In this document: positions 22,819-59,456 of the stretch, piece by piece
Layout of the letters: each line of letters starts with the position of its first letter
Numbering within the stretch: position 1 is the first letter of the stretch
Source of the DNA: Straminergon stramineum
Lineage: Eukaryota; Streptophyta; Bryopsida; Hypnales; Calliergonaceae
Assembly (NCBI GenBank): GCA_963920665.1
Contig: OY987265.1
Span: 35,779,001-35,843,000 of the forward strand
Direction: 5' to 3'
DNA length: 64,000 nt
The notes under the pieces: generated by a model
What the model was told of the DNA's origin: nothing
The model's input: the letters and a program-made list of their open reading frames with translations, nothing else
The model's database searches: none
Position numbers and translations under genes: made by a program

Positions 22819-24204
22819 GTGGTTCACATTTAAAAGAATATGTTTTCACTACTATAAAGTTTTTTCCTTGATGATGCATTCTAATTGTATCATTCATGCA
22901 TGTAGGAAGTTTCTTTGTTTCTATGTAGTTGCATAATATAAGTGAGGTGCTCCAATTAATATACAATTTTTTGGATGTATACATAGGAATTAGTATATTT
23001 TTTTTCCATTATGCATTCAATATTCAAGGAAGCATATAGTATATGTAATGTAAACATCAAAAACATTATAAGTGTATGTATAAGTTTGATATACGTGTGC
23101 AATGTTTTATTTACTTGTATACTATATGATGGTAGAGAATATATTCATAGAGGCAATGATTGTTCACTTAATTTAATAATTCTATTCCATTTGATACTAG
23201 CAATACTTGACACATTCATAATCCAATGTTTGTTGTTCAAGATTTAGAATTGATCTTCTCTTTCTATTATCATGTATACACCAACTTTGGAAGTACTTTC
23301 CAAAGGATACCACAACAAAACAATGTACTCAATTAATTGATGCATTAGGCTCTAGTCTCTACACTTCTATAACCATAATTCACCAAGAAAAATATCATGC
23401 AAATGGTCATCTCTAACTTTGCAATGAAATGGAAATTAAACCATTGATCATCAAAAATTTTAATATAACTTTGGAATTTCATTCTTTATTCATAATATAT
23501 AAGGTTTTTAAAAGAGCATACGAGAAGAAGCCTATGAAGTAGAAGAGTAACTCCTAAAATATAGATTAATTCTTTTCTGGTATTTTCAAGAACTACAATT
23601 TAAGACTTTTACATCAATATAATTTTATTGAAGGTAATAAACTATGTTAAGGTAAATCACACTTGAAAACTTGAAAAGAAACTTAAGCATAAAATACTTT
23701 TGGATTAGTGATGTGAAACTTATGGAGCATCTTGTTTTATAGGCAAATATAGAAACATTTTGGAAAAAACAACATATTGGATTATTTTTTTAACTCAATT
23801 TTTACTATTCTTTGAAACAAAAAACTCTAGTGGGGATAATTTGCTTCCTAGATCAACTTCACTATTGAGAGTAGCATGCTTCAATTCTATCTTAGAACTA
23901 TTAATGTTTTAGTTTTTCTATCCATCCTAATTGAGTGTTTTCTTTAATCTTGATTTAGTTTTTCCTTCAATTTTTAACTTGCTTCTCCTACAGGGTTGCT
24001 AGTAGGTGAGCCTATGAGCATGAGCCTGTGAGCCTGTGAGCTTGTGAGCAGGAAAAAAATAATTGAAAAAATTTGTGTATGGACCTATGACCGTGGTTTT
24101 TGTGCCATGTGCCATGTGGTTGATATAAGGTCAATTTAAGGGATTGGAGGCATGTATTTCGTCTTTTTGGTCTTTCTTTTTGGCAAAGACTAAATATTGT
24201 CAAT
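22819..24204. other. AT-rich region with fragments of the TTAA-element family
   Basis: No gene. A 9-bp-type degenerate repeat built from GAGCCTGTG lies at about 24004-24048. The stretch 23680-23900 resembles 24480-24720 (both contain TTTAACTCAATTTTTA and TTTTGAAA), suggesting an older, overlapping copy of the same repeat family. Confidence 0.4.
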
Positions 24205-25055
24205 TTAACCCCTACAAGACCAGCCTTGTATTCTTGGCAACATAACTTTTTTGGGTAGGTAGATGTAAGTAGTGATTTGACTTATTTAGGTTGAAATTTT
24301 TTTACAAGGTGTGGACAAGGAATATCTTCCATGCTTGCAAAATTTCATTTCATTTGAGTATACAAGTGAAAAGTTATGATGCAAAATGTTGCTTGTTTCT
24401 CAAGTTGGGCAGCTCGGGCAGATCTGAAAAAAATCAAATTTTTCCAAAAAAAAAATTTGAAATTGGTTTTCTAGATTCATATTTATAGGGAAAGCTTTGA
24501 ATTAGTCCATTTTGATTAATGAGATGAAAGTTATGAGGAATTTTATTTTGAGGGAAGTTATGGAATCTCTACTCTAAAATAAACTTTGAAGTCCTTTATT
24601 TAACTCAATTTTTAATACTTTTTGAAAAAATGAAAATTATAGGATAGTGATTGTTTATTACAACATTCCAACCATTGGGATTGTTGATTGGCATTTTTGA
24701 ATTCAATAATTAAATTTGTGACAATTTAGTATTTTGAATTATTCTCTACTTCTTTCTACTTACCATTTTTTGCCTATATGTTGTACAAGTCCAAATGATT
24801 CCAAAATTTTTAAGAACATTGCCAACTTGCCTTGAAGAATTAATCCAAAGATGCACCACCATTTGGTCACTTCAAATGCTAATATCTTGCAATTCACACG
24901 GTGGAAATTGATAAAAATTTTCAAAACAACTTAATACAAGATCGTATGGTTACATGTGTTCAAAAATGTTTATTGCGTAAATTTGGTACTTGTGCTAAAA
25001 TGGAAGTTTGGGGTTGTGGTTGGTGAAAACGGAGTCAAAGACCTTTAGGGGTTAA
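24205..25055. mobile_element. Non-autonomous TTAA-bounded element, copy B
   Basis: Starts TTAACCCCTACAAGACC and ends GGTCTTTAGGGGTTAA-type sequence (ACCTTTAGGGGTTAA), with TTAA at both outer edges. Same orientation and internally similar to copy A. It ends 135 bp from the stop codon of the ParB-methyltransferase gene. A further diverged fragment with CCTTGCAATCTACA lies near 43775, next to the second Mutator gene. Confidence 0.55.
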
Positions 25056-25189
25056 AACAAATGAAGTAATTAAAAAACATCCATGGAAATTAAACACATC
25101 CAAGAAGTAGCCATAAAACACACAAATTTAATAAAAATAAAAATCAATACACAATAGTTTGACTCAAGAAATTTGTCTATCTCATGAAT

Positions 25190-28100
25190 CTAAGTTACTA
25201 TGGACTCGGTAGTAGAATCGGAACCTGTAGATGACTGTGAGGACTCTGTACCCTCGGATGCAGATACATCTACATATTGCAAGACATTTAGAGCATAAGT
25301 GTCTTTACGACGTTTTGGTTTGGAACAACCAAACTCCGCAAAGGCTCTTGCCATCTGCTCGGCATAGACTGGAAGCTCAAAAGGCTTCTCCGGACTAATG
25401 AAAAGACTTTGTTTTGGCATGATGGCATCTTTGGGCATCAATCCGCAATCCCTACAAAAAAATTAGACATGTGGTCAAGCTTTTAGAATGCGAAAGTCAC
25501 CATGCAAACAAAGATGTTAAAAATTGCCAACTTACTTACTAAATTTCCCCTTGCGAATGAACTGACGAGGCACCACGGGCATGTCTTCTGGATCTTGTGA
25601 AACCTCAACCACCGGCGTTTGCGTTGGTGTCGCCACCATGGCTATCGGTGACTTCCTCATTGGCTTCAGTATGGCATTGTAAATGTCTTTATTTCCCTCC
25701 AAAGCCACAATGTGGCGGCCAGTACCACGGCAAGCTGTAATGCATGCACTTGGAGGCAATAAAATAAAAATTGATTAGTTCCATGATTGAATTAGTAAGA
25801 TACAATTGGAGTGTAGAATATATGAATTGAACACTTACCTGTGGATGTGGTGCAATCCAAAATCAAATCTCCTTCGACGCTTGTTGCTTCGAGGAGGATA
25901 GTGAAGAACCTTGGATCTTTTTCGCGCCCACCCCGCCATGGCTTCTCCCCATTCATGGCCATGTCATTTGCATGGGTGTAGTTCATCAACATGTCATCGT
26001 TTGCAACATCAACACTAGCTTTCATCATGGTGTTAGTCCGTTTGAAAGAGAATTGGGATTTCCCTTTGGAGCCAAGGTCCTTTACAAGGAGGGTCACTCC
26101 AAACTTCTGTATCTGCAACATCCATGCCAAATTTACATTAGAACATATTGATTGTAGTGCATTATGAATTGTTGATGGAAGCCAAAAGTTTTGAATGGAA
26201 TTTACCGTCTTGGTATTGTCTATAGCTGAGGTGAGGTGCATGCGGTTCATTCCCATCCAATCCTTTTTCTTCACCAAATCATATATCTGACACACTCCAG
26301 TAATGTCTTGCCTCGACTTGATGCTATAGGAGTGAAACACAATGATGCATCCATTGTCCTGTAGATGCTCTGCGGCAAAGCTGCACGCCAATTGCAGAGC
26401 CTCATCTTCTGGATCAGCGTTCCATTTTGGCACCTCGTTTGGTGGAAAAGAGAGCCCTGGTATGGGCAAGTTTTCTGGGCAATCAATAAAAATGACATCC
26501 ACCACCGGCCGAGCGTTTGGTACACCTTCGAACATGGAAGGCTTTTCGGCAGACATCTGCAAACATGTAGTACATTAAAAAGTGAATTATGACCACAAAC
26601 AATATTCATGTCACTCAAAATAAATAAATGAATTTTGACTAGGAAGATAAAGATGGTTACCTTCTTCAAAAAGCACAACACCTCGTTGTACCAAGTCAGC
26701 TCTTCCTCTAGCATGTCCTTTGCTAAGACTTCAATGGAGATGTTGAGGATTAAATCCTCGGTCTTCACCACATTATCTTCTGTGAGGACCAGCGCTTGCG
26801 TCACATGAGTGATGACTTCTTCAGTGAGTTGCGAGAGAGTAGCCTTCCTTGTCATTCCGCTTTGCATTTGCGAACCTTCATCCATGGTGGAAGATGATAT
26901 GACTTGGCCTCCCGCTTCATCCTTTTTCTTGCCCTTGCCCTTGCCCTTGTCTTCTTTCTCCTTCTCTGCCTTCTTGGCCACTCGCTCTGCCGCCTTCTTT
27001 TCCTTGGTTTCTAGTTGAACTTGGGCTCGAGCCTCTTTCTTTTTGTCATTTGCATCCCTCCTCATAATGGCCCTCTTTCTTGCATTCTCATCGAGGCCAA
27101 CAAATTCATCAATCTCCAAGTCCACGACCCCTTTGCCATCCAAAGATCTCCTCAAAGCAATCTCAGAAAGAGGAGTAAATTCAAGGGTACAATCTAAGTA
27201 CCATCCTCCCCCACTAAGATGAGCTGTGGTGTAGGTGCGGAGCTGGTGCGCGGTGAACATACAAGCCGTTGAGCTGCGATCAAGATATGATGATAGGAAC
27301 GGAGGAAGGTCTAAGCGTGCAATGGCCCCTTTGCCTTCGAGTTCGAATTTGAAATACCTAAAACCCAACCATAGTCATTCAATATAAAATATTTTCATGA
27401 TGAAAATGGAAGTGTAAGAATATACTACTATGCAAAATCCCTGATAGTTAGGTCACAGCTCTTTACAAGAATAAAAGCAATGACAAATTCAAGAAGGAGA
27501 AGAAATGCTACAGAAGAAGTATAATACAATTCATCTCTAATTAGAAATAGGGTTTCAATTCGAAATCTCGGAAATGTTACTTTCATCTAATTGAAGGTGT
27601 AGAGAAGTCTCCACCCCTACTTTGTCTCCCACAATTTATCGAGATCCGAACGTGATTAGTTGAACATACCCAATTTTAGAAGTTGTAATTCTAACTCATT
27701 AGAGACATACTATTGGATAAAGACCTAAATTTCATGGAAAGAAGTTGATGGAACATACCGGAAGAGAACTCTATGCACAGCAGCGCCTGAACCTTCGTGA
27801 GCGAGAAAGGACTCCCCCTTCTTGAAATAATTCTACCCCTTGAAGTAATTCATGAACCCATGATCCCAGATTGTGCGCCTCCATCCTTCAATGTACTCTG
27901 GCAAGTATTGTGGCTGCTCTGGGATCTTGTAATTGATGGTGATGTTGTCTTCCCTCACTACCGAATCAAAGTATTCCACAGCTGCATCTTCGAGCTAAAA
28001 AACATGCCACACTATGAAAATCCATAAATTATGATGTGAAAAGGTTAGTTCCAAACTCGCGAATGAAAATTTCAATACCAACCATCGCCAACTAGATTTA

Positions 28101-29719
28101 TATGAATATAAAAAATTGTTTACTTACCCCCGCATACCAGACACATTTGGCAAGAAATTGGGGAAGGAGATTTTCGGAAACGGGCTTTGGCGGGAACTTC
28201 CTTGCTTCGCGTGTTGGAATAGAGGAGTTCCACCACTTCAAGATCTTGATCTTGTGTGCAGTTGTCATGCTACATGTGGCCACCAACTACAACTTCTCTA
28301 ATGTCATTTCGGGCACTTCGTTCATGCTCCAATGCCTCTCCACCTACACCAATAGTACATTTAACTTTAGTTGAACTACAAAAAAAAAGATAAAAACTGT
28401 AGTAATACAAAAACAAAAATGAACTCACCTCTTCTAAGAAACCAGGCCCATTAGATGGTTGAGCCACCACCAACAATTTGCCCATTTTCACCATCAAAGT
28501 TTTAGTTCTCTCCTTTGCTCCAGCCCTCAAGGCATGAGTGGCCTCTTCTGGCTTCCTCTCACTTTCATGTGTGGCATCGTTATACTTTCTCACTGCAGCA
28601 TCTGCAGCTTGAGAAATCTCTTGCTGCACAATTACCCCATTTTTGTGGTTAGTCATTAAAGTACTTGAAAAAGCATGCCATGCCAAAGGATTTGAATTAT
28701 TATAGAAGAATGTATCTTACCCGAAAAATAAATGATGTGAAAACCTCTACGGGTATGTTGTACCATTTCCTAGAGACCTTGTTTTGAAGACACCTTTTCT
28801 TCTCTGCAGGCCTCAATAGATCAGCAAATCGCTGAAATGGCAAAAGTCTGTACTTCTGCACTTGGTACAAAGTGTGTACCAAGTTCGTTTTGACGTGTGA
28901 GTCTTCAACTGATCTACAAGTGAAGCAATGTGCATGTTATCATTATGTTCCTAAATGTCATAGAAATATAGAAAATCAATATGCTAGAAACAAAAAAACA
29001 AGAGAAAATTAAAGTGAAAAAACTCACTTGTTGATGTCATGCATCACTTGCATGACAAGCTTGGTCCGGCCTTTGGTATCTAGTACAATGCAGTCGACAA
29101 CGTAGTGCCACTTTTCTCGCAATGTATAACATCTATCAATTAGATTCATCCATGCAATTCGGCGATGATTGCCATCGTAAATGAAGAACTTTAAGTTCAT
29201 CAGGAACTTGAGTTTAGGTCTAGACTCAAGATACCGGTTAAACACCTCATTTTTCTCCCTCCATAGCACATCCCACTTACTCATCTTAGCCTCCGTGAAC
29301 TTCGAGCTTTGTCCTTCTTCATTTGTAGTGGACACATAAAATACCGATGCTCCATCACGATATCCGCCGGCAAATTCCTGCTCCAACTTTGTTATGTCAC
29401 AAGAGAGTGTAGGCCTTACCATGGGCATGGCTACAAGTCTACAGAGCAGAATGTGTAGCCGGAAAAGCTCTTCGGGCTTCATGCGTAGACTAAAGAGAAT
29501 ATCCAGTGAATCCCCTTTTTGAATACGCCGAAGTTCGTCCTCCATCATCCCTTTCTCTTCCTCATCTTCAACATCTATCTGCATGGACTCTTCTTCTCTT
29601 TCATCTTCTTCTTCTTCTTCTTCTCCTTCTCCAATATGGGGCTGCTTTGTATCATTCGTGCTTGGCATCTCTAAAACAATATCCTCTTGAGTTTCCTTAA
29701 CAGGAGAGACATCCATCTG
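25190..29719 (-). pseudogene. ParB/sulfiredoxin-like domain fused to degenerate N4/N6-type DNA methyltransferase fold (gene 1)
   Basis: Ten exons with fully consistent phases: 29028-29719, 28721-28913, 28429-28623, 28128-28343, 27759-27994, 26661-27357, 26206-26556, 25839-26112, 25536-25734, 25190-25451 (about 1,104 codons). After an acidic N-terminus (EGEEEEEEDEREEE), exon 1 carries a ParB/Srx-like domain: FAGGYRDGASVFYVS and, near its end, FFIYDGNHRRIAWMNLI, where DGNHR is the domain's signature loop. A middle region includes a KGKGKGKKKDE basic stretch. The C-terminal third looks like a beta-class DNA methyltransferase: DVIFIDCPE at the DPPY position, then DNGCIIVFHS, then DPRFFTILLEAT, GDLILDCTTSTG and CRGTGRHIVALEGN at the FxGxG region. 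Motif IV lacks PPY/PPW and motif I lacks the G-rich loop, so catalysis is doubtful. Two in-frame TAG codons (28287-28289 and 27833-27835) interrupt it. The 93-nt intron 26113-26205 is open and in phase, so it could be coding. Confidence 0.75.
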
Positions 29720-29939
29720 CATGTACAATTTCAAGTATATTCAATTTGTCATTCAAAACAAAAAAGAAGTGACATTGTTGCAACGAAGTTGTCATTGTAG
29801 TTGCAATTGAAAATACTTTATTTTTGAAAGAGAGATTATACTTGCATAATAGTAGTGAAGTGAATATATGAAAGAAAATGAGCCTCCAAGAGGCTTCCAA
29901 GTAATATGCCGCAAATGATATATTCCTAGAGAAATTATC

Positions 29940-30551
29940 CTACTCTAGGATATCAATGTCATCATCCTCATTAGAGTCCGAGCTAAGGATGATGACTTAC
30001 TTTAGATAAATCCTACCACTACACATGCACTCGCACACCTCCTCAAATGGAGGACTAGAGCTTGCATTTGAGAGCTCTATTGCTGAGGAATACTCTGTCT
30101 CAGAGCTCTCAGGAGAAAACCATGGCCCACGCCCACGTCTCTGACCAAGCCTATTTCCCTCAAAGTCATTTCCCGCCCGCTCTGCAGCATCCATAATATC
30201 GGCAAAACTCACCAAAGTCCTCTCGTCATCGCTAGAGTCACTTGAGGGATCCACGCTAGGTTGAGGCCACTTCTTCGGCTCAGATGGTCTCCCAATCTCT
30301 AGCGCTGGGAATGTATGGTCTATCGGAGTTTGCTTCTCAGTAGAGGCGATCTTGGGGCGCTTGCCTCTGCATTGACCACTCTGAATAATAAAAGAAGTTT
30401 AAATTATAAATGATGATCTAGATAATGGTACTAATATATGAGCACAAAAATGTGAGGATGTGAACTTGTAGACTGAAAAACATTTGAGTTCATCATTTTC
30501 CAAGCCAAACACAAGAAAATTCACACCTACCTTTCCTGTCATCTTTATCAT
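29940..30551 (-). CDS. Small acidic ORF upstream of ParB gene 1, two exons, possibly its 5' part
   Basis: ATG at 30551 opens MIKMTGK, spliced (donor GTAGGT at 30530, acceptor CAG at 30381) to SGQCRGKRPKIASTEKQ. The frame continues through FPALEIGRPSEPKKWPQ, SDSSDDERTLVSFADIM and FEEVCECMCSGRIYLK to TAA at 29997. Past that TAA the same frame gives VIILSSDSNEDDDIDILE and a TAG at 29940, so the TAA may be a mutated CAA. Alternatively GTAAGT at 30000 is a donor joining to ParB gene 1, but its phase does not match the exon at 29719. No known domain; acidic Ser-rich sequence suggests a nuclear protein. Confidence 0.45.
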
Positions 30552-30741
30552 AGAAAGAAAGACATAATAGTGTCATCCAACTACCATTACCTCTTGAGAG
30601 TTGGAGTGTGCGCCATCCAACGTTCTCGGAGCCACATGGAAGACCTAAGAATTTCAGAAAGGGAAGTCGGTGTCAATTGAATCACTAATTGAAATTTAGG
30701 TCAATACTTGAATTTGGAGTAGCAACAACAATCCTAGATAT

Positions 30742-30761
30742 GGCCATCGAATCCGACGGCC
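30742..30761. repeat. Palindrome family 1, copy 1 (diverged)
   Basis: GGCCATCGAATCCGACGGCC, an imperfect 20-bp palindrome sharing ATCCGACGG with the other copies. A sequence similar to the right arm of other copies (GGTACT-type) follows at about 30765-30790. Confidence 0.5.
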
Positions 30762-31159
30762 ATTGGTGGGTACTCAAATTTAGGTACTGTTAAGACTCCT
30801 AGGCAATACATGCCTATATATTCTAGATTTCTGGTATTCAAAATACCAATGTTAAATGCCTGAAGATGCCTGGAGATGCTTCATTATGTGGGAAGAGATA
30901 CCTAACCTACTTCAATGCAATAAAATGATTCAATATGTCTAATACTTGAAATCCAAAAGTCAACTACAAATAGCTTACATTTCGTCAATTGGGCATTTAG
31001 TCATGATACAACTAAAGGATATCAACAATAGAAATACAACAATAACGTAGGAAAAATGATCAACAATATAGGAAAAATATAACAACAATGAAGATCAAAT
31101 GAGCAATAACAGAAAAATTTAGAGACAATTGATACATGTTATAAGTTTTGGATCCAATT

Positions 31160-31240
31160 TGGGGGGTACTAGAGGATACCACTAAAAACACCGTCGGATC
31201 CGACGGTGCTTTGGGGAGCGCCTTCCAGTACTCCCAAAAT
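31160..31240. repeat. Palindrome family 1, copy 2
   Basis: Core CACCGTCGGATCCGACGGTG at 31189-31208 is a perfect 20-bp palindrome. Flanking arms (TTTGGGGGGTACTAGAGG on the left; AGTACTCCCAAAAT on the right) extend the inverted repeat imperfectly to about 80 bp. Confidence 0.7.
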
Positions 31241-31567
31241 AGGTTACATGAAAAAGTGGAAGATCAAGTGCTATCCAAAAATGAGATTAAATCAATTACT
31301 CGAAAATTCTAGGGATGTATCCAAAGAACTTGGATGTCAAATTCATGATTTCAAATATTGAACTAAAAGTAGAATTAGTGAAGGAACCTCCTATAGAATG
31401 GGCTAGACGTCCAATTCTAACAATTTGATTACACGTTTTGGAGTCCTCTTGTTTGAATTTGTGGCATCCATAGCCCACTCTTAACCTAGCATGCAAATAG
31501 AAAATATTGTAGCACTCAGGCAGGGTAGCGTTTTAACAAAAAAATTAGTAATTTATATGTTCTTTGA

Positions 31568-31660
31568 TAGTTTTGAGGAGTACCACAAAGTAGCCTTGGA
31601 ACTACCGTCGGATCCGACGGTGGTTTGAGGGCTTCCTCGCGCTACCCTAGAAAATTGATG
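31568..31660. repeat. Palindrome family 1, copy 3
   Basis: Core ACCGTCGGATCCGACGGT at 31604-31621. Outer arms (GGAGTACCACAAAGTAGCC left, GCTACCCTAGAAAA right) are diverged inverted repeats. Confidence 0.65.
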
Positions 31661-32007
31661 TGGAGCTTTAACATCTTAAAAAATGAACCACAATTCCATG
31701 ACTTTTGCATAATGAGGGCCGAGATGTGTAGATGACTCGGAGGTCACGAGATAAATCTTGAAAAAAATAATGAAACAAGAAATGAAAGACAAATCGGACT
31801 TGAATTTGCTAAAAACTTCCATTCAATTGGCAAGGGCAACTTACTACAAATCACAAAATAGCAAATTCTTGGATAAAAATTGAGCTTACTGAAATGAGAG
31901 GGTAGTCTACGATGAACTACCTCTGTCTATACCATACCCTCTCATATACCTCTGGCTCTTCTACGGTTCTTCTACGGTGAAACTTCACATTTAATTTTTC
32001 TAATCTC

Positions 32008-32160
32008 ATAGGAGAGTGAGCTTATCTACGCTGATTCAGATTCTGTATATTTCCGCTGATTTGAATCTGACAAGCGAGTGAGCTTATTAACGCTGGTTCA
32101 AATTCTGAACATTTCCGCTAATTCCAATCTCACCTGCGAGTGAGCTTATCTACGAGTGAA
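32008..32160. repeat. Tandem repeat, about 63-bp unit, 2.5 copies
   Basis: GAGTGAGCTTATCTACGCTG recurs as GAGTGAGCTTATTAACGCTG and GAGTGAGCTTATCTACGAG, with TTTCCGCTGATTTGAATCT / TTTCCGCTAATTCCAATCT between. Non-coding. Confidence 0.65.
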
Positions 32161-32270
32161 ACTTCAGATTCTGTTGTGAGACTTGTTCAACACATTGAGC
32201 TCACCTCTACTCTATTCAATGATAGTCTAATTAAATCGTCAAAAACAAACTTCATAGACGAGACTAGGAG

Positions 32271-32437
32271 AAATCGGTGATCAAAGCTAAATCGGCAATC
32301 AGAGATAAATCAGTGATCAAAGCTAAATCGGTGGTCAGAGCTAAATCGCTAAATCGGTGATCAGAGCTTAATTGGTGGTCAGAGCTAAATCACTAAATCA
32401 GTGATCTGAGGGAAATCGCTAAATCGGTGATCAGAGC
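32271..32437. repeat. 18-bp tandem repeat array
   Basis: About nine degenerate units of AAATCGGTGATCAGAGCT, with some short 8-bp half-units (AAATCGCT). Non-coding satellite-like patch. Confidence 0.8.
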
Positions 32438-32629
32438 TACTACTCTACAGTGAACTTCGAATTCGGATTCCAAACCCTTACAGCCTAAACCGGTGATTTC
32501 AACAGTCTAAATCGGTGATTTCAGTTTTTCAATCTTTGCGTTGGAGATGAACAGATGGCCCAAGCGGCCCAGGTGAGATTTAGGAAGCACAACATTCACA
32601 ATTTCAAGTGAAAAGTTGCATTGTGGAAT

Positions 32630-32737
32630 GTACACTTCCCATTTTCAAGGGTAGTAGAAGGTACCACCAAAACCACCGTCGGATCCGACGGTGGTTTTGG
32701 TGGTACCTTCTACTACCCTTGAAAATGGGAAGTGTAC
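32630..32737. repeat. Palindrome family 1, copy 4: perfect 108-bp palindrome
   Basis: Two arms of 54 bp match base for base as reverse complements with no spacer, centred between 32683 and 32684 on GGA/TCC. The left arm starts GTACACTTCCCATTTTCAAG and the right arm ends CTTGAAAATGGGAAGTGTAC. The centre contains the family core ACCGTCGGATCCGACGGT and a flanking GGTACCACCAAAACC. Absence of any mismatch implies recent formation or gene conversion. The transcript would fold as a perfect hairpin. Confidence 0.95.
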
Positions 32738-32811
32738 CTTCCGCAAACCTTGCTGGCAGGATGACTTATTCCAAGTGCACGAGATCAGTAATATAGATTC
32801 TAATTGCGTAG

Positions 32812-33140
32812 ACAAGCTCAGGCTCATCACAAGCTCATTGCAGGCTCACCCAAGCTGATCGTGGATTCACACAAGCTGATCATGGATTCACGCAGGCTCA
32901 TCGCAGGGTCACCCAGGTACATTGCAAGCTCACACAAGTTGATCGTGGATTCACGTAGGCTCACCGAGATTCATCGCAGGCTCACCCACGTTCATCACAG
33001 GATCACCCAGGCTCATCGCGAGTTGACGCAGGCTCATCGCGGACTCTTCCGGATTGATGCAAGCCCATCAAAAAATCATTGCAGAGTCACGCCGACTCAT
33101 GCGGGCCCATGCGGGCCCATTACAAACTCATCAGACTCGT
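32812..33140. repeat. 21-bp tandem repeat array
   Basis: Degenerate units such as AGGCTCATCGCAGGCTCACCC and AGCTGATCGTGGATTCACGC follow each other for more than 300 bp. One plus-strand frame (32804-33256) stays open and reads seven-residue units (KLIVDSH, RLIAGSP), but the openness follows from the repeat period and is not evidence of a gene. Confidence 0.8.
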
Positions 33141-33319
33141 TCCATACACGCAGGGTTCCATACACAAGACTCACAGGACGTGGAATCTCTCAAAAAATGG
33201 AACGTGGAATCTCACAAATGTGGAAACGGCAGAGCTCTAGTAACTCACTGGCTTGATTTGTGTAGGTGCTTCCGGCTCCTGCTCCCCAAGCACTTCAAGA
33301 TCGCCTGGTACCTTTGAGC

Positions 33320-35100
33320 GCGCCCGACTCCTTGTCTGCCTGGTCATGTTTGTGATGTGATCTCGCCCTTGTATCAAACCAGGAATTCGTTATTGCAAAG
33401 CTGGAGTAGGAGAATGGAACAAGTGAATTCGTCATCTAAGTCTTCTCATCAGAGATGGACGTGGACGAAACATGATCACAATCTTTTTTGATTAGTCTTC
33501 TAGATCCACAAATTCCGGCACTTAGCTGCCGCCACCCTATTTTTTGGCTTCCTATTTTTGGCACGTATGCTTCTCGAAGTAGCACACTGCCATGTCCATG
33601 CAAGTCACTTTATTTGAGGCCGCATCTTGGAAGGACTTTCCTCTACCCGAAAATTAATGCATTTTAATTTAGAGAAGATTTAAAGCTCGTCAACCTTGTT
33701 TTTTGCTTTTGTGGTGACTAACTGGTCATTCGTGCTCTTGTTTAAAATTTGGTAATTGCCCGTGTGGAGAGGATCTTAGATATTGAGTTGATAATATTTT
33801 TTTTCCAATTCATTATCTTACAATATTTTACAACGTCTACTCAACACATATGGCATACACTTGTTTAAAAAAAATGTTTAAATCATATCGTCAAATAGTT
33901 TGGGATAGTTGTTACAATGTTTCTTTGATGTTTGCTATTCTCTAGTAATTCACTGCTAGATTCCAAGTTCTTTCATTGATACAGTTGTAGCTTCCAAAAA
34001 TAGTTATGCACTTAAGGTTATCATTCTATTTTGGAATACAATTTCTGTAGGGAATTTGAATTTGAAGTTCTACTAAGAAGTTTTGATGTTTGGTATATAA
34101 ATCCCTTTCTCTAGCAAGAAAAAATGATCACAAGAAAATATTTAATATTTAACATATCACAATGCTTAATTGAAATAATTTCCTTTCAATTTTCATTGCA
34201 ACATGCCCATAACTAGTCTCCTTTGTAACTAATATCTTAGTGAATCCAATATCTAATAAATGTCTAGGAGAATTATTTTGAAATTCAATGCAAGACAGAT
34301 ATATATTATAGTATTCAACATCTGATTATTTCTCTTGGATTGGTCTCAAGTAACGTTCTATGTTAGGGTTAAAGCATTTTTTTACACTATATAACATTGA
34401 GTTAATTTTTGCTAAGTTTCTCATTTAAGAACTAAAATCACGTATCACATATGGAGCTAATGGGTTGTCATAATTGTACTTCTAGGAGCACATTGCATTT
34501 AATTAGCTTTAAAGACACCATTCTCTAGCTTTTTGGTTTCGATAATTCTAGAGTGAGCCAAAGAAGTCTAGGAAGAACACTATAATGTTCGTCACTATCA
34601 TTATGATATTGTTTTAAATAATCTAAGTAAGAGCTGTAGATAATTTATTTCTATGATGTTTAATTAGAATATTGTATTTCCTACACTCTAACAACATTTA
34701 TTGTTATGCTGTCAATCCTTGACAATGGAGGTTAAGCTTCCATGGGAAATGCATGAGGAGCTAAGAAATGTTTAATTGATTTCCATCTGTTTTTCCCTAA
34801 GTGAAAAGAAGAGAGTTCTACCAAAATTGCCTATGGAAGATCATGTCAGAGTAAAATAAAATTACAAACCATCAGCTACCAATCTAACATTAGGAAGATG
34901 ATCTAGTTTCTGTACATTCTCGAAATCTTTACTACAACATGCAATAACCTTTGCTATTCTATGTGTTCAACTCTTGAGATTTTTAGAGAAGAGAGAAGGA
35001 AATTGATAGCACAAGGCATACAAGCATATTAGTGTTTCAATGAAACTAAAAGACAAGCTAAAGCTGAATGGAATGCAAACATGTTGACGGTTAGGAGTAC
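33320..35100. other. AT-rich region without a gene
   Basis: No ORF, exon or structured repeat that I can support. Confidence 0.4.
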
Positions 35101-35283
35101 CTCTTGTCTTGCAACATTCTGTATGCTACTGGTGTCCTCCATCATTCCTTGTGATGTATCCAAGTTCGGCACTTCAATATCTTCCTCCACAGCACTACCT
35201 CCTGCTCCGAAGGATAGAACTTTCCTAAGGTTCCCAGGTGTTGATTGACCTGTCTTTGACACAATTCTCTTGTTTCGAGTCAT
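35101..35283 (-). CDS. Possible small exon, unknown protein
   Basis: ATG at 35283 gives MTRNKRIVSKTGQST, PGNLRKVLSFGAGGS and EEDIEVPNLDTSQGMM up to a donor-like GAG/GTACTC at 35100. Composition is protein-like and not low-complexity, but no partner exon or domain was found. It may be a 5' exon fragment of one of the mobile genes (TRNKR also occurs at the start of an exon of ParB gene 2 near 58700). Confidence 0.3.
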
Positions 35284-35339
35284 CATAGATTTTCTAAGTG
35301 ACTTGTAAGATGAAAAATACAAAGAAATGCTTCTCTAAT

Positions 35340-36235
35340 GCTTCTTTTGTCACACTATGACCTAGAGATGGAGGGTTACGATCATGTACAAGCAATAGCG
35401 GAGATCATCCTTCTTCCAAACTAATACTGAGAAGTAGAAAAGCTACACAAGTCACGTAGCAGCAAAAGAGACTTTGGTTTGGAGAAATGACCACTACTTA
35501 TATGGTTGAAATGCCCTTGCCTCATAGCCTACAATGGGACATTCTAGAGTAGGGTTGGCGATAGAAGCCGCCATTACCAATTAATAGCAATTGCACCTTA
35601 CAGCTCATTGTCGTTGTTCAATGCGCCGTCAATTTTCAAAATATTGTACAAGTAAACTTAAATAGCACTCTGTCCGTTCCTTTTTTTTTACTGTTACACT
35701 CCAATTAATTATTCCTTTCTAATTAATTTTAGCGCACCATTCTTTCAAATGTATGTACTTTAAGTCATTCAACTGAATCAAGTGAGGCTGACACAACCGC
35801 CATACACTATGAAGGTTTTGTGGAAGGGTGGTGTTAATATAATGTTCTAGAGAGGGTTGTAAAAGCTATTTTCATAATTAGTACTACACATTCATCCACT
35901 TCCTTCCATCGTATTATCCCCTTACTGAATTGATGGAGAAGGTACCACTGCCATTGAAGTACTTAACAAAGATGAATTGTCCTTCACCCAGCACCAAGGA
36001 TCACCTTTAGTCTTCTTCATTTTTCTCTCCTCATGTAGTTTGTATCATGGCTTCCATTCGTGTAGATGATCATGAGGTTCCTGTAGAATACCGATTATTT
36101 TTTTTTTGTTGTTATAAAATTTTGGGTGTTTTTATTGTGTTTTTTTATTGTTTTTGTTTGATTGTTTCTGAATTATTTGTCTATTTGGTGTGTTATTGAA
36201 TGATGGGTGAATGAATTATGTGTGAATGTATGTGC
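35340..36235. other. Gene-free region
   Basis: No coding signal; ordinary AT-rich sequence. Confidence 0.4.
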
Positions 36236-38090
36236 TGATTTGGATGAATGATTTCCTAATTGGAATAGTCCGGCTGTCCATCCAGTTTCCAAGTTTTAAT
36301 CGGTAATCCAATTAGGTGATAGTTTAGTCCAAGTCAGATTGTATGCGAATGTCCAGTCAAGTTGGTTGGTTATGTGTTAATTTCCAATTTGGAAATTTGT
36401 TTTGTGTTGTTGAGGCAGTTATCTGTGCAGTTCCAACTTGGTGGTTAAATTGGTAGTTGTATGTCAGTTCCAATTTGGTAACCGCCCGGTTTTGTGAGTC
36501 CTATTTGGGTTGTGTTTTTGGTCATTGTCTTTACCGTCTGAGAGAGAGTCCAGCCGCGTCCCAGCCAGGTTGTGCTGTGTATTTTCGTTTATTTGTGTGT
36601 GATTTATCAAGTGGGAAATGCTTGGTGGTTTATGAGTGTGTTCAAGCAGGTGCTTGAGTTTATGTGTGGATGTGAATCTGTGAGTCTTTGAAGTTTTAAT
36701 GTGATGGAGAAATGGTGAATGCCTAATTGTGGGATTTTTAGATTCCAAGTGGGTGTGAAGTTATGAGAAAAGGAGGACTGGCGTAATCTAGTTTATGAAC
36801 TTAGTCCTAATTGGGAGACAGATGGTGAGATTATAATTGGATGTTGAGATCCAAATTGGATGTTGAGTGAATCAGAGTTAGCTAGAAGAAGTAGCTAGCA
36901 AGTACTGAAGTAGAAAATGTAAAAAAATATAAAAAAAAAATAAAAATAAAAATAAAAATATATATATATATATATCTAGAAATATATAAATAGTTGAGTG
37001 AAGAAGTTATGTTTAGTCCAAATGGAGGACTGGAAGGAGAATTAAAGTTGAGAGATTAATGTAATTTGGAGCCTGTGATTCCATATTAGAGACTGTAGTG
37101 AAAAATTGGAGATGTGAAGTTTATTTAGTGATGTTGTGAGTTCTGGTGGAATACTTGGAGAAAAACATTAAAAGTTGTAAATGGTGATTTATTCGCCAAT
37201 TCAGTATTATGAGAATTTTGTTTAAGCCAAATTAGTTTCTGTGTGTATGGTCTGTCTGTATGTTTGAATATAAATTCCAATTTGGTAATCAGGTCTGAGT
37301 TGTGATGTGATCCAATTTGGAAGGTGTAACTGTTTGGAAGTTGTGATAAATTATTCCAAGTCGGTCGCTGTTTGTGTTTGACTAGGAGTTTTAAAGTCCA
37401 AATTGGTAATCGTGAATGCTTAATAGCTTGTATGAGATTTATTGGGAATTATTTTTATTGGAGTTATTTGATGTTTGGAAAATGATCCAAGTCGGGAAGT
37501 ACTGTCATAATTGGTTATATTAATTGAGTCCGAATTGGAAGTGTGCTTGCTGTGTGTGTTTATTTCCAATTAGGTGCTGGTTTTTTTGAGAGTTATTATT
37601 TTCCAAGTTGGAAGTATAATCTGAGGAGTGGAAAAAGGTTGAGTAGAATATTTTGCTAGTTGTATGCATTAAGTATTTTTATCCTAATTGGTATGAGTAT
37701 GAGTGATCCAGTTAATTAAAATCAATTTGGAAAGTCCAGTGAGTGGAGTGCGGAGTGAAATTAATTCCAATTAGGATCTGCAAGGAGTGGTATAGTGTTA
37801 TAAATTATCAATTTCAAGTTGGTGGAAAAAGATTCTCTAGTGGTTGAGAAGATCAACAAGACCCATTTGGTACCTGAAAGCTGAAAAGGCCAATTTGGAA
37901 GGCAAGGCTTTGGCAGAGCTGTGATGTTGGCATGTCTAATTTGGGAAAAGACTTAAAGATTCAAGACTAAAGATGCAAAGATAATTGGGAATTAATTCTT
38001 AACCCTTGTGGCCATTAAGAGGGGAGTGGAAAGAATCTAGCAATTAGATTTTAATGGTGAGGTTTTTTTTTTAATTATTCCTAGTTGGAA
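36236..38090. repeat. Dispersed CCAA-n-TTGG motif array upstream of Mutator gene 1
   Basis: The pseudo-palindrome TCCAA(T/A/G)TTGG(T/A)A or its halves recurs several tens of times at irregular spacing of roughly 30-80 bp. Examples are TTCCAATTTGGTAACC (36470), CCAAATTGGATG (36850), TTCCAATTTGGTAATC (37277), TCCAATTTGGAAGG (37310), CCAAATTGGTAATCG (37396), TCCGAATTGGAAG (37530) and TTCCAAGTTGGAAG (37600). Such subterminal arrays are known as transposase-binding regions in CACTA and some Mutator-like elements. Here they end just before the transposase reading frame begins. Confidence 0.65.
36920..36976. repeat. A-rich and TA simple repeat
   Basis: AAAATAAAAATAAAAA followed by about ten TA dinucleotides. 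Confidence 0.9.
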
Positions 38091-38179
38091 GTTTTCTTCT
38101 TCTTTTGTGGTTGTGATTTGACCGTTGGCTATTGTTGAAAGTTAGAAACATCCCTATTTAAAAATTGCCTCCGTAGGAA

Positions 38180-41100
38180 CAAACTATACTATTAGCTTAT
38201 TAATTTCCGAATAGGATAAAAGCTTATCTACAGTTCCCCTCGTATTTCCAGTAGATGAGGGAGGACATGCAAGAGTATTGAGCCATCTACTTCATGTCCG
38301 CTTCAAATTTGTAGAGTCATCTATATATGTTGAAGAAGAGAAGAGGTCAGAATCAGGAGAATTGTTGCAGTCTATTCCCATAGTAAAATCGATACAAAAG
38401 CATGGAAATTGTTGGTACCTTGCTTGTGGAAACTATAGAGCTTACGGATTGCCTTTTTCTATTCTAGCTGCATCAATTGAGATTCAAAGTCGCCAATCTA
38501 ACAATTCATCAGTGGATATGCCTTACATTGCCCATGCGATATCACCTATCCCGCCTTCTGAAGTTCTACCCATTGATCCAAACAATGTCCTCCGAGTAGT
38601 GAAGGTTGAAAAACTAGATCCAATCATAGAGTTGTCTAGTGAATCAGAAGCAGAGTCCTCAGACTTAGTGCTTCACAAGCAACCGTGCTCTGTTCAAGCT
38701 ATAGTGCAAGAGAAGGTTGAAGTTAACTCATTGTCTGGCACACCGTCAAATAGTCATGCACAATCTCAATTGTCCCGTCCTCCATTGCATCCAAATGCAG
38801 TTGATCGAGAGAGCATAGTAGATTGTTTGAAGAGATTAGCTACTATGCATCGTTGTAGAAACGAATTGTCAATAGTGGACTTCAATGGTATGGAACAACA
38901 TCGTGTGTAGTTTCTTCCACCTGTTTTCAATGGCAACATTATCTTTGAACTACCACCATGTCGGTCATCGTCGTCTTCCTCAGCAACCAAGAACTTGGAA
39001 GGGATGGACAAGCGTTACGATGGACACCCATGGTGCAAGTTGGTGACTACAAACATCCAAAACTCCGACAATCTCAAGTTTCGTAAGTCATACTGCTCTG
39101 GTCATCTTGCTTGTAATAATCTAGAGTGTGATTACTTGATGAGGGCTTCTAAACGCAACGAAACAGAATGGACCGGTTACACAACCTTCCCTTTTGTAGT
39201 AGGGGATAGTCCTCCCAAGGATTGTACTCTAGTTTGCAAAGTCTGTAGAAAGTCTCCTACTTGTTTAAACACATGCGATGCTAGGATTTACTACTCGTAC
39301 AGTGATAATCCAAAAATGAGTAGGGCCGCCATTCACCTTGGACGACATGATCACCCTACGGCAAAGGGCATGTATAGAGACTCTACAGAAAAGATTTGTG
39401 AACTCATTGGGGAGCAAGTAGCAAAGACACCGACGGCCACCAACTCTGCTATTGCTCTATTCGCTAGCAAAGACTTCCTTACAACCTATCTATTTTATAA
39501 TGGAGAGGGAAAGAAGGAGATGTTGAAGGGGGAAGAAATGGAAGAGGTCATGGATCGTTGCCAATTTTTGAGCAGTCCAAACATACGGAATGTCATATCT
39601 TCATTTCGCTCAAACAATCAAGGAGGTGTCATCGACAACATCATGACCATGAAGAAAGAGTCTAGGTTCGAATACATTCACGACAGTGTCTTCCTTGGCC
39701 AAGGAAAGGAGAAGGTATACATTTTCAAGATGCTCACAGAAGGTCCTGGAAGTGGAGTGGACCTGGTGAGGCGAATGCAACTTGGAGGGAATCTACAGAA
39801 TGCATGGATGATGTTTGACCACGTCAAGCGCGTAAAGGAGTGGACCACAATGGCTTGCCATGTGTATGATCCAGAGTACAAGAAGGTAATGACCATTTCA
39901 ACATGCGATATGCAATCTGAAGATACCGAGATCCAAATACAATTTTGGAGGTGCCTAAACACTGTTATGTCACGACATGGAGTGGATCATCCAAATTTCA
40001 AGGGATTCATGGCAGACAGTGCTATGGCCAATTGGAATGCGGTTCATATTGTCTACGGAACTGGGTTTGCGAATGACAAAATGGATAATCGAGAGAGGAC
40101 ATGTTTGTTGCATTGGAGTACTTCCCTTCATAAACACACCCAAAAGTACATTAAAGAAGCATTCCAACAACAACACAATTCACTATGCAAGCAATACAAA
40201 GATGCAAAGACTGTGGAGGAGGCAGAGACATGATACCTTGCAATTCGATCTTGGTGGTTATCATCTGGAGCAACCACTGAAGATGTGCTTCATCATTTGG
40301 ACCATTGGCTTGCATTTTGGCATTTTAGGTACCGCCAATGGGGAGGCTTCATGCAAATGGTAAGTGTACATTGAATCCAAATTTGCACATATCATTGATC
40401 TTGATACATTCTAGTGTATGATAGTTTGTTCATTTGTAGTTGGAGGTATGCAGGACTGAATTTGAAGTAATGAGTCATGAGTACCCAACCCTTACTTATT
40501 TTTCCCATCCAAATTTTTTCCTCGTAGTTTGGCTGGAAAAAGTAGTACCACTAGGCAACCCTTAAACACCCGTTGGATTTGACGGGTGATTTTGGAATGT
40601 CTAACAGTGTTACTGTTTCCAATCAAAGTGTGAGACCCCAGAAATTAGAGGATGCTAGGATGGTAGTGGTAAACTAGGAATTGCTGCCTTCTTGTTCTTA
40701 GTGTAAATATAGGTCATTCTCAAAGGGGTTCCTTCGCAAAGGAGTAAACTTAAAAAAATGTTTGTAATGGAATGTACTTCATTTTATTCCAATTATATAT
40801 GGATTTAGTTGTTATAGGACTCAATTTTTGTGAGTTCTGAAGTATAAACTTCAGTTTGGGAAGTCCTCATATTTTGGAATGGCTTTGTAGGATTTGAGTT
40901 TGGAAGAGTTGGCGGACATGCCTTCATGCAACCTATCAGAAATAGTTCATAACAAGTGGCTTCAAATGTCTGGAAACCGAGGCAACAATTTGTTTGATGC
41001 CACTTGTGACGACAGTATCCGTGCATGGATGCAAATGACAAACTACCGTGCTTTCTTGAGAGGACATTCTTGTGGATCTGGTCCATCAAAGGGAGAGTTG

Positions 41101-42279
41101 AAGTTGAGAGCTGCTAGACGAAGTGGAGACCCCAAGAAAATGGCAGAGGCGCTAAATACATTACCTGAAGCAATAGGTGTTGGAACTCGCATTCCGCATT
41201 TGGAAGGAGAAGAAATCTTTGGAAGCATGAAGAGGAAGTTGGATGTTCCCATTGGAGATGCAGGAGACTCACATCGACCAGACAAAGTCAATTTTTCTCA
41301 ACCTCGTGTTCGAACAAGGTCTACTACAGCTTTAACTGAGTCTTTGGAGGGCAAAGAAAAACAGCCTGAGGTGACCCATTCACGATATGTTACAGTTGCA
41401 TTTGAAAGTGATTGCGACACGTCAAAGTGGCACATTGCAAGAATCAGCCACAAATCCAATGCTAAATGTCAAGCTCAACAACAAGGGTCAAATATCAAAT
41501 GCATAGGCAAAATTGCAAAGGGACGAAAGGAAACCCTAGCTCCCACCTATCATGGGAGAAAGGAAGATTACGGAAGTAAACGCGAAGTGGTGGCAGACTT
41601 TTGGTTCTGTTGGGATGACATTGAACGATGTGTGAAAGGAACTAAACGCAAGTGGGTTATAGATTGGCCTCAAGTACCAGAGACTTGGCCTGTTTTGACT
41701 GGCACCAACCTCAATTGGGAAGAGATATTGCTATTGCAACATGCAAGCTTCCGTCTTCAAGAACGCCCTACACTATCACCACGTCGACTTTTCAACATGT
41801 CAAATATATTCAAGACTGCGTTGTATACTAATCCGCCACCACAAAATGCAGATGTTTATCCAACGGTTAGGAACAACCGAACCATACGTCGAATTGCAAA
41901 TTCACCAACTACAGAACAATGGAACAAGTGGGAGAGTGCTGGCAATGTTAAAGGACAAATAGTGGGAGTGACATTGCTTCCTTTTCCAGGCCTAGGAGCA
42001 ATTGTGTCATTGGAGACCGGAACAGATCCTAACATACATGTGTATCAAATCACAATGGGTATGTTCCCCACGTGCACATGCCCAGACTTTGTGAATATGG
42101 TTGTTTCCGCTATTGGAGGTCGTCAGCAATACGTAAATTGTAAGCACTTATATTATTTGTATCGGTACTTTTGCAAGATGGACATCCATGATGACAAATT
42201 CATTCATGCACCGAGTTATAGCTTCAATGAATTGAAGCTACTTCTAGTTCGAGCAGGAATCATCATAATTCCAGAATAG
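38180..42279 (+). pseudogene. Mutator-like transposase with zinc-binding and SWIM domains (MULE 1)
   Basis: Exon 1 runs from about 38180 to 40359 and exon 2 from 40891 to 42279 (donor ATG/GTAAGT, acceptor TTTGTAG, phase 0 on both sides). The 5' part (VPLVFPVDEGGHARVLSHLL, GNCWYLACGNYRAYGL) is unfamiliar. It is followed by a zinc-binding block (SYCSGHLACNNLECDYL; CKVCRKSPTCLNTC; AIHLGRHDHP) like WRKY-GCM1/FLYWCH fingers. A transposase core comes next: TISTCDMQSEDTE, then GFMADSAMANWNAV and ERTCLLHW, the D and CxxH features of MULE transposases. Near the end CTCPDF and CKHLYYLY form a SWIM zinc finger. In-frame stops at 38212 (TAG), 38908 (TAG) and 40231 (TGA) break an otherwise clean frame. 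It probably catalysed its own transposition and is now dead or read only in pieces. Confidence 0.8.
40530..40620. repeat. Palindrome family 1, copy 5, in the MULE 1 intron
   Basis: CACCCGTTGGATTTGACGGGTG at 40568-40589 is a diverged core. Arms GGAAAAAGTAGTACCACTAG and AACAGTGTTACTGTTTCC extend the inverted repeat. It lies inside the 531-nt intron of the transposase gene. Confidence 0.55.
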
Positions 42280-42529
42280 GCATAGCCACATTTTTTTGTG
42301 TACTTCATCCGTATTGTATATGTTCACATATATTACGATTGGAATGATTTGAAGCTTATGGAATTGAAAATGTTAATCCATTCATGGAATATGTCCCGAA
42401 TATGTCTCATTAGTCAATTGTCTTCAAGTAAGTTCATATTAACGATGAAGATGTACAATTGTAAACCCTATTCAGTAAGGTGTATATGAATATAAAAAGA
42501 ATTTTTTTTTTCACAGATTTGTCCCATTA

Positions 42530-42910
42530 GTAAATTTTGACATTGTCTTTTGAATTCCATTGTTTTCTTCTTAATTTTCCCATTTGCTTCTAGATTTTCT
42601 TCATTCCCCTTTCTTTCTTGTTATTCTTTCCCATGTTTTTCCTATCCCCATTTTTTTTGATCTCCTTCGTTTTTCTCTTTTCATTTTTTTTTCATTCTCC
42701 ATTTTTTTTTCTTTTCCCATTTTTTTTTCATTACCCATTTTTTTTCTTAACCCATGTTGTTTTCTTTCTCTATTTTCTTACCATCCCTATTTTGTTTTCT
42801 TTCCCATTTTTTTTCTTTGCCCTTTAATTGTCTTTCCACATTTTTCTTTCTTCCCTATTTTTTATCTTTCTCCTATATTTTACTTTTTTCCATTTTATTG
42901 CTTTCCCCCC
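42530..42910. repeat. Pyrimidine-rich tract
   Basis: Degenerate reiteration of TTTCCCATTTTTTTTC for about 350 bp on the plus strand, just downstream of the transposase stop codon. The open frame across it (FFSLPIFFL-type) is a composition artefact. Confidence 0.8.
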
Positions 42911-43970
42911 TTAGTTGGTGATGTTTTAGTATTTGTTTCATGATGTCAACATTTGGCAATACTTAGAATTAAGAAGAAAAATCAATTTTAGATTTGAAAA
43001 TGATATATAGTAAAATACCTCAAAATTAGGATGACAAGTGTACCAAAAATCCACAATAGCTTGTGGTCATCATCTCATACTATACATGTGACCTTCTACT
43101 AGTTTTGTTGGAAATCCCAATCGTAAAGGGATATTCAGAAGTCTTTGTTCTATGTATTCAATCTAGCTAGTGAGAACACCGCAATAGAGTTACTCCCAAA
43201 TGACATCTACCTAGCATACTCAAAATGCCTACCATATTTTCTATTGTAGTCATTTCACCAAGTGCTCAAACTTTTCAACCAAGTGCTCAAACTTTGTAGC
43301 AAAGTTTGAAGGTCTTTTCTCGTAGTAATTAACAATTTTAAGACAATGGAAAATGACTCATATCACAATCCACGGTTATAGGGCACACGGTTATAGGGCA
43401 CAAAATTTACTATAAATAGTAAAAAATTCTACTTCTGGACTTTTTTTAAGTAATAAAAATTTAGGGGAATGTTTTTTCTGTAAAATAATGTTTTCCAGGC
43501 TCCACGCTCGCAAACTCCATGCTCCAAGCTCACAAGCTCGCCGCTCCAAGCTCGCATGCTAGCGTCGTTGGCTTCTCCTAAGCTTTTTTTTAATGAATGG
43601 AAATCAAGTTTTTCTTAATTTTATTTAATTTATTATATTCTCAACTAAATTCTTTAACATAGAAAATTTGAAAGTTTGTAGTACAAAAATTTAAAGCTAA
43701 GAAGATTCAAAGTCTTATAAATCTAGTCATATGAGTTAAAAAACAACTAATTTTTTGCACTTCCAACACAAATACCTTGCAATCTACATTGTCAAAGTTT
43801 CTTAAATTTCTTTCACACATTCACAAGCTAGTCTAAACACAAATATTTGGATACATACATAAGAATTTGTAAGTTCTAATTCCAATATTCATTGATATTC
43901 ATGGGAACATATACATATGAATATGAAAAACATCAAACACATTGTCTTCTATGAAGTACATCATCTTTTT
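42911..43970. other. Gene-free region between the two Mutator genes
   Basis: Contains CACGGTTATAGGGCA twice in a row near 43371-43400, a GCTCGCAAGCTC-type degenerate repeat at 43497-43562 that mirrors the one at 24004-24048, and a fragment of the TTAA-element family near 43700-43840. Confidence 0.45.
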
Positions 43971-46900: not shown

Positions 46901-47332
46901 TGGACGGAAATTTTTGTCCGCTTCACGAATTTCCTAGAAGATAGGAAATTTTTGCCTTTGTAAACAAAAAATCATAAGATCTTTACTTGGAAGAATAAAT
47001 TGAATGAACTTTGTAGAAGACTCTATAGGAACATGATCAAAGAGAGGTTTTGAGGGCTCATCTATGAAATTCAGTAAGTCGGTAGTTGAGAAGTTTGATT
47101 CCCATACATCATCTTCTTTCTACTTATGCTCCATATCTTCATCAAAACTTGAACTTGATTCAAAATCAGAGAAATGGAAGTAGATATCTTCCATTGTTGC
47201 AGAAGAAGTAGGTGGATGACCTCTTGAAGATCTATGAAGTATATCTTCTACTCCAAGTATGTACTCCACATCGTCTTCAAAATCAGTTGGATAACAAGAA
47301 TCATCTTCATTGAGGTCAATGTTTTCTTCCAT
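43971..47332 (-). pseudogene. Second Mutator-like transposase gene, heavily decayed (MULE 2)
   Basis: From 47332 the frame reads an acidic start (MEENIDLNEDDSCYP) and continues open to about 45990 apart from TAGs at 47120 and 46934. It passes WVINQRIGGIPPSYIGSC, a basic stretch KKRSKKRKKKEP and a Cys/His cluster (CMSTCRRK, HSNHNGHHP) like a FAR1/WRKY-GCM1 finger. The transposase core follows with a frameshift: AFDSTFITNQYDLLIYAMIV, then DGGHEGIAIELALTHVF, WAFIIDKH, TAG (45493), TGA (45442), RVFLCWLHVMKAWSENLF. The end holds a degenerate SWIM finger (HICDCASTTSICKRIL, 44390-44737). It is not a close copy of MULE 1. The FAR1-like architecture is common to plant MULEs. Confidence 0.75.
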
Positions 47333-57814: not shown

Positions 57815-57836
57815 TTCAGGTCGATCTGACCTAAAT
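57815..57836. repeat. Palindrome family 2, intronic copy 1
   Basis: TTCAGGTCGATCTGACCTAAA, core AGGTCG/CTGACCT, in an intron of ParB gene 2. Confidence 0.6.
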
Positions 57837-57914
57837 AATCAAGAAGTATAATGCATGACAAAATATTATAGAATTCAAATACAAGAAAAACTGTATGTAA
57901 TATGATCAGATATA

Positions 57915-57942
57915 CAGATCAGGTCGAACTGATCTGAAATGC
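57915..57942. repeat. Palindrome family 2, intronic copy 2
   Basis: CAGATCAGGTCGAACTGATC followed by TGAAATGC: an imperfect palindrome around GGTCGAACTGATC, 80 bp from the previous copy and just downstream of the exon ending at 57952. Confidence 0.6.
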
Positions 57943-59435: not shown

Positions 59436-59456
59436 TTTAGGTCAACCCGATCTAAA
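59436..59456. repeat. Palindrome family 2, intronic copy 3
   Basis: TTTAGGTCAACCCGATCTAAA, with arms TTTAGGTC / GATCTAAA, inside ParB gene 2. Confidence 0.6.

What the first reader, a model, noticed from the sequence alone, without database searches (positions are those of the whole stretch)
25190..29719. Plant gene joining a ParB/Srx-like domain to a bacterial-type DNA methyltransferase fold
Ten exons join in phase into about 1,104 codons. The N-terminal part has FFIYDGNHRRIAW, the ParB/sulfiredoxin signature. The C-terminal part has, in beta-class order, FIDCPE (motif IV position), GCIIVFHS and GDLILDCTTSTG joined to CRGTGRHIVALEGN (motif I region). ParB-domain plus N4/N6-methyltransferase fusions are established in phages and bacterial mobile elements. 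A spliced, eukaryotic version among transposons suggests an ancient capture that spread as a plant gene family. I know of no described function for such a plant family.
Basis: partly seen in the sequence, partly recalled or inferred. Interest (0 to 1): 0.9.

Follow-up and report, generated by a model that had tools for sequence, protein, structure and literature searches.

The report
Transposon gene with ParB-methyltransferase domains
A large, abundant jumping gene in a eukaryotic genome carries, next to its probable transposase, a spliced gene that joins two bacterial-type domains (a ParB DNA clamp and a DNA-methyltransferase fold); the same pairing was recently noted in algal transposons, but here the methyltransferase's usual active-site motif is replaced and the element carries palindromes that might be its landing sites.

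The parts
23991..43570 (.). whole transposon, 19,580 bp; left end CAGGGTTGCTAG, right end CTAGCGTCGTTG (imperfect inverted ends CA.....GCTAG)
   Evidence: left boundary shared by the 5 other copies whose left end was read; right boundary from the one other copy whose right end was read, C11
23981..23990 (+). left target-site duplication GCTTCTCCTA
43571..43580 (+). right target-site duplication GCTTCTCCTA, identical 10 of 10
29028..29716 (-). exon 1: acidic N-terminus, then ParB/Srx fold with DGNHRRIA
28721..28913 (-). exon 2
28429..28623 (-). exon 3
28128..28343 (-). exon 4 (in-frame TAG, codon 378, in this copy)
27759..27994 (-). exon 5 (in-frame TAG, codon 485, in this copy)
26661..27357 (-). 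exon 6, with a Lys/Glu-rich low-complexity linker (seen by eye)
26206..26556 (-). exon 7: methyltransferase-like domain, motif IV position FIDCPEN and GCIIVFHS
25839..26112 (-). exon 8, ends in motif I (GDLILDCTTST)
25536..25734 (-). exon 9 as joinable in this copy (the family's acceptor lies upstream and is lost here); CRGTGRHIVALE
25190..25451 (-). exon 10 and stop
38215..42279 (+). probable transposase gene, divergent; in-frame stop at 38908-38910 in this copy. Zinc-cluster, MADS..NW and SWIM-like CxC...CxH motifs read by eye
   Evidence: 96 scored matches, open frames up to 782 aa; no convincing Pfam or PDB match
31191..31206 (.). palindrome CCGTCGGATCCGACGG, core of a longer inverted repeat
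31605..31620 (.). palindrome CCGTCGGATCCGACGG
32630..32737 (.). perfect 108-bp palindrome centred on CCGTCGGATCCGACGG (32676-32691)
30744..30759 (.). degenerate palindrome unit (2 mismatches)
40570..40585 (.). degenerate palindrome unit (3 mismatches), inside the transposase region
31998..33057 (.). tandem-repeat arrays (units about 62, 18-26 and 21 bp) between the two genes

Best explanation
It is the accessory gene of a large terminal-inverted-repeat DNA transposon. Shown: the two domains, the ends and target-site duplication of the window element (left end in five more copies), high copy number, linkage to a probable transposase, constraint between subfamilies, a conserved non-canonical motif IV, and family-linked palindromes. 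Inferred: the ParB-like domain binds a nucleotide and loads on the element's own DNA, possibly at the palindromes between the two genes, and the methyltransferase-like domain (SAM-site residues kept, catalytic tetrapeptide changed) acts there as a divergent modifying enzyme or as a SAM/DNA-binding platform, so that the element escapes host silencing or is marked for transposition.
Confidence: 0.6

Rival explanations
1. An active N6A or N4C DNA methyltransferase that marks the element's own DNA, with ParB as targeting domain, as proposed for the algal proteins.
For: Profile matches are to DNA amino-methyltransferases; the motif-I Asp is kept in 27 and the Glu of the ALE stretch in 30 of 30 copies; PMC12477816 suggests self-modification (passage).
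Against: Motif IV is DCPEN in 21 of 30 copies and never (D/N/S)PP(Y/F/W) in the 30. In the rotifer N4CMT, replacing Ser and Tyr of SPPY by Ala abolished activity (PMC8885841, passage).
Confidence: 0.2
2. The ParB-like domain is an NTP-regulated nickase that helps excision or replication of the element; the methyltransferase fold is a DNA-recognition remnant.
For: A Bacillus cereus ParB-methylase fusion has non-specific nicking activity (PMC5512222, passage). The ParB fold here is supported.
Against: No nuclease residues were tested; constraint on exons 7-9 between subfamilies argues against a mere remnant.
Confidence: 0.12
3. A host gene family domesticated or captured from bacteria, only sitting among transposons.
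For: It is spliced and constrained between subfamilies.
Against: Same left end in six copies counting the window, target-site duplication, at least 150 dispersed matches, many with stops, fixed orientation to a repeated transposase-like gene. Between the window copy and its nearest chosen relative dN/dS is 1.84, 0.40 and 0 in exons 7-9 and 1.34 in exon 1, from very few changes, so the evidence for relaxed constraint in young copies is weak.
Confidence: 0.05

Closest known systems
Sola1-1_Ec32 accessory protein of Ectocarpus (PMC12477816) and the green and red algal relatives cited there
   Same: A protein of 1,104 aa with a ParB-like and an N4/N6-type methyltransferase domain, encoded on the strand opposite the transposase in a giant (21.5 kb) DNA transposon.
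   Different: Here the element has a 10-bp target-site duplication (Sola duplications are 4 bp, recalled), the probable transposase fits no Pfam family, motif IV is mostly DCPEN, and there are family-linked palindromes. Homology to the algal proteins could not be tested; the two papers cited for the green and red algal cases are not held.
Phage and bacterial ParB-methyltransferase fusions (PMC12704722, PMC5512222; Bacillus cereus Bce_0392)
   Same: ParB-CTPase fold joined to an N6_N4-type methyltransferase, often on mobile elements (passages).
   Different: The one here is eukaryotic, spliced, has a long linker, and its exon 1 has no relative in the viral or GTDB contigs searched. The PMC12704722 survey covers eukaryotes but its text holds no word beginning with 'plant', 'moss' or 'transpos'.
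VANC anti-silencing proteins of Arabidopsis VANDAL elements (PMC5735166)
   Same: Accessory protein of a plant DNA transposon; short target motifs, often in tandem repeats, inside the element (passages).
   Different: VANC has DUF1985/DUF287, not ParB or methyltransferase; anti-silencing is shown for VANC and only a hypothesis here.
TET/JBP genes of KDZ transposons (title cited in PMC12477816; details recalled)
   Same: A DNA-modifying enzyme carried as transposon cargo.
   Different: Different enzyme and different transposase.

Membership tests
ParB/sulfiredoxin (ParB-CTPase) superfamily | ParB/Srx fold | tested here: met
ParB/sulfiredoxin (ParB-CTPase) superfamily | G-x-[H/R]-R phosphate-binding signature (recalled) | tested here: met
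   D181 G182 N183 H184 R185 are at least 90% conserved among 83 rows.
ParB/sulfiredoxin (ParB-CTPase) superfamily | nucleotide binding or hydrolysis | not testable with these tools
   needs protein
Beta-class N6/N4 amino-methyltransferase (PF01555) | profile match above the curated cut-off | tested here: not met
   8 of 10 members match, best E 4.6e-4, but the one score shown (member 1, 18.4 bits) is under 26.7
Beta-class N6/N4 amino-methyltransferase (PF01555) | motif order IV then I, both aligned to a known enzyme | tested here: met
   DpnA 5hfj and 5hek aligned at both places, with weak scores of 2.5-2.6 and 9.6 bits
Beta-class N6/N4 amino-methyltransferase (PF01555) | catalytic (D/N/S)PP(Y/F/W) | tested here: not met
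   0 of 30 copies; 21 of 30 read DCPEN. Hence filed as methyltransferase-like, not as an N6/N4 enzyme.
[quoted passage not shown]
   subject to the transposase being only probable
Transposon accessory ParB-methyltransferase proteins (algal kind) | common descent with the algal proteins | not tested
   algal sequences not held
Mutator-like element (MULE) | 8-11 bp target-site duplication (recalled) | tested here: met
   10 of 10 identical in the window copy; 7 of 10 in the C11 copy, three transitions
Mutator-like element (MULE) | MULE transposase domain | tested here: inconclusive
   no convincing Pfam or PDB match for the window ORFs or a 739-aa open relative; motifs seen by eye only; a genome search for PF10551 did not complete

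The most novel reading that the evidence does not exclude
A transposon-borne, parABS-like self-recognition system in a eukaryote: a ParB-type NTP clamp loads on a cluster of family-specific palindromes in the element and spreads, carrying a methyltransferase fold whose active-site motif has been rebuilt (DCPEN) for a new chemistry or for SAM-dependent binding, to keep the element from being silenced.
Probability: 0.22. Interest if true: 0.88.

Novelty: new variant of a known kind. Interest (0 to 1): 0.6.

Why it matters
It shows that the ParB-methyltransferase pairing, known from phages and other mobile elements and recently noted in algal transposons, also sits in a large transposon family of this genome. 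It offers concrete tests of whether transposons mark or shield their own DNA: a candidate site (a 16-bp palindrome found 32 times in 326 Mb), a protein with a modelled ParB fold, and a conserved odd active-site motif. If site binding holds, a eukaryotic transposon would be using a bacterial partition-type clamp.

Tried and rejected
Pfam scan of the joined window protein gave nothing useful; the methyltransferase match appeared only with copies that have intact splice sites. A database search with the joined protein scored 7,984 candidates and found no relative; searching by exon gave 638 relatives of exon 1 at E up to 0.1 and 10 of exons 7-9 at E up to 0.01, I think because the database holds exon-sized ORFs of eukaryotic contigs. 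Sequence profiles of the ParB part found no ParB family in PDB or Pfam; the top PDB row and the KMP11 matches are taken as chance. A single-sequence fold was useless (pLDDT 41). Right ends of three further copies were sought at predicted places and were not there. A viral origin was considered: no relative of exon 1 in viral contigs or GTDB genomes. The transposase class was not settled.

The notebook gives the element's right end 10 bases too low; the coordinates here are corrected.

Literature: ten searches. Of PMC8885841, PMC5512222, PMC5735166 and PMC12704722 I saw passages only; of PMC12477816 passages and the first of two parts of one section. I saw no ParB-methyltransferase transposon protein of a land plant in these listings, which show at most the top 15 papers each; most subscription papers are not held.

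Full report
What is in the sequence. The gene is on the minus strand. Ten exons (29716-29028, 28913-28721, 28623-28429, 28343-28128, 27994-27759, 27357-26661, 26556-26206, 26112-25839, 25734-25536, 25451-25190) join in phase into 1,103 codons and a stop. So this copy is decayed. Blocks of other copies match the same exons, at identities from over 90% down to about 50-80% by exon, which supports the splice model without RNA data.

It is a transposon. Blastn of other copies against the window gave one sharp left edge at 23991 in the four copies first read to that point and in a fifth. The right edge comes from a C11 copy, which lacks window 29840-40583 and ends at window 43570. The ends read CAGGGTTGCTAG and, reversed, CAACGACGCTAG, and the window element is flanked by a perfect 10-bp repeat GCTTCTCCTA; the C11 copy has flanks that agree at 7 of 10, with three transitions. 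Right ends of three more copies were not found where expected.

Copies and partner gene. Exon 7 has 150 scored matches from 730 candidates, exon 1 150 from 833; both are lower bounds. On the plus strand of the element, 38215-42279, lies a broken ORF series; its middle part has 96 scored matches from 1,115 candidates, with open frames up to 782 aa in relatives. Of those 96, 56 have a listed exon-1 match 2-25 kb away in divergent orientation on the expected side, 55 of them at 4.8-11.7 kb; random placement gave a mean of 0.59 and at most 3 in 200 trials, with some contig lengths estimated. The other 40 have no listed partner there; only the best 150 exon-1 matches were available, so some are probably missed. 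I call the plus-strand gene a probable transposase because it is repeated with the element and shows zinc-cluster and SWIM-like motifs by eye; Pfam and PDB gave no convincing match to the window ORFs or to a 739-aa open relative.

Methyltransferase-like domain. Ten copies without stops in exons 7-9 (10 of the 16 that passed, of 30) were aligned. Pfam N6_N4_Mtase is the commonest match, 8 of 10 members, best E 4.6e-4; the one score shown is below the curated cut-off. One member matches six PHROG methyltransferase families, best 2.7e-5. The top two of six PDB rows are DpnA adenine methyltransferases, aligned at the motif IV and motif I places, with weak E-values of 0.18-0.19. With the family acceptor, motif I reads mostly LDC[S/T]ASTGA[C/S]I[T/V]AC...HIVALE, as long as the DPFxGSGTT...IE stretch of known enzymes (recalled). 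The 30 copies are those most like the window among the 150. In them motif IV reads DCPEN in 21, its first D is kept in 30, and none reads (D/N/S)PP(Y/F/W); the motif-I Asp is kept in 27. Five of the five fetched database relatives that cover motif IV read D-C-[P/Q]-[E/K]-N (8 of the 10 hits were fetched). In a rotifer N4C enzyme the Ser and Tyr of SPPY are needed (PMC8885841, passage). So this is a conserved but atypical methyltransferase fold.

Selection. For six loci chosen per exon, dN/dS between subfamilies is 0.05-0.26 where it can be computed; dS is often near or past saturation, and the exon-1 pairs between the window group and the other loci give no value. Between the window copy and its nearest chosen relative it is 1.84 (exon 7), 0.40 (exon 8), 0 (exon 9) and 1.34 (exon 1), from very few changes; pairs within the third subfamily (L015, L028, L030) lie between 0.08 and 0.49. 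Long-term constraint is clear; relaxation in young copies is suggested by the stops more than by these ratios. Among stops, TAG is the commonest, TAG and TGA.

Palindromes. Between the two genes lie four units centred on CCGTCGGATCCGACGG (three exact, one with two mismatches), one of them a perfect 108-bp palindrome, and a degenerate fifth lies at 40570; five matches stand against a chance mean of 0.01. Among the eight half-units of the four central units the first eight positions agree in 7-8 of 8, the outer ones in 3-8, mostly 4-7; since one unit was found by its core, this leans towards the core. Genome-wide the exact 16-mer occurs at 32 places, against none for the reversed control; 24 of 32 lie within 15 kb of a listed transposase (about 0.9% of the genome), at 12 transposases, 20 of the 24 being 5.2-8.9 kb to the upstream side. 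A further one (C3:33882865) lies about 2 kb from an exon-1 match; the other seven lie near no listed transposase. Units from elements with other sequence are again long palindromes, but they were picked by the core, so their core identity is no evidence. That these are ParB landing sites, like parS, is an inference; hairpins with another use are not excluded.

What is known. [quoted passage not shown] PMC12704722 (passages) reports that ParB-fold fusions to methyltransferases are frequent in phages and that the fold binds CTP, ATP or GTP. PMC5735166 (passages) shows transposon anti-silencing proteins that recognise short repeated motifs. The present element therefore belongs to a known kind. 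The variant points are the different element (10-bp duplication), the replaced motif IV and the palindromes; whether the algal proteins share the last two was not tested.

Noticed in passing
window 57300-60900, minus strand: A second, heavily decayed gene with a ParB-like IINGQHSIAA stretch (59504-59812) and a possible methyltransferase motif-I-like stretch (GSSVFSVFTGGKLTCTAL, near 57960-58010), read by eye; Pfam finds nothing useful in the four pieces scanned. It may be another ParB-methyltransferase family.
   Followed up: partly
window 51316-52011, minus strand: NLI-interacting-factor-like phosphatase ORF (Pfam NIF, E 2.2e-11).
   Followed up: no
window 4663-5309: Fragments of a repeat shared with flanks of other copies, and about 72% like window 24871-25055 near the element's left end.
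   Followed up: no
window 29997-30395, minus strand: Open acidic ORF just upstream of exon 1, whose first ATG directly follows a splice acceptor; possibly an upstream exon of the same gene.
   Followed up: no
window 44390-46933, minus strand: Further ORFs outside the element, one with a cysteine-rich SWIM-like stretch by eye; perhaps another transposon's transposase.
   Followed up: no
G000 C8:1057507-1080176 (L038, L045): A copy of the gene with about 22 kb between exon 1 and exon 7, so apparently split by a nested insertion.
   Followed up: no
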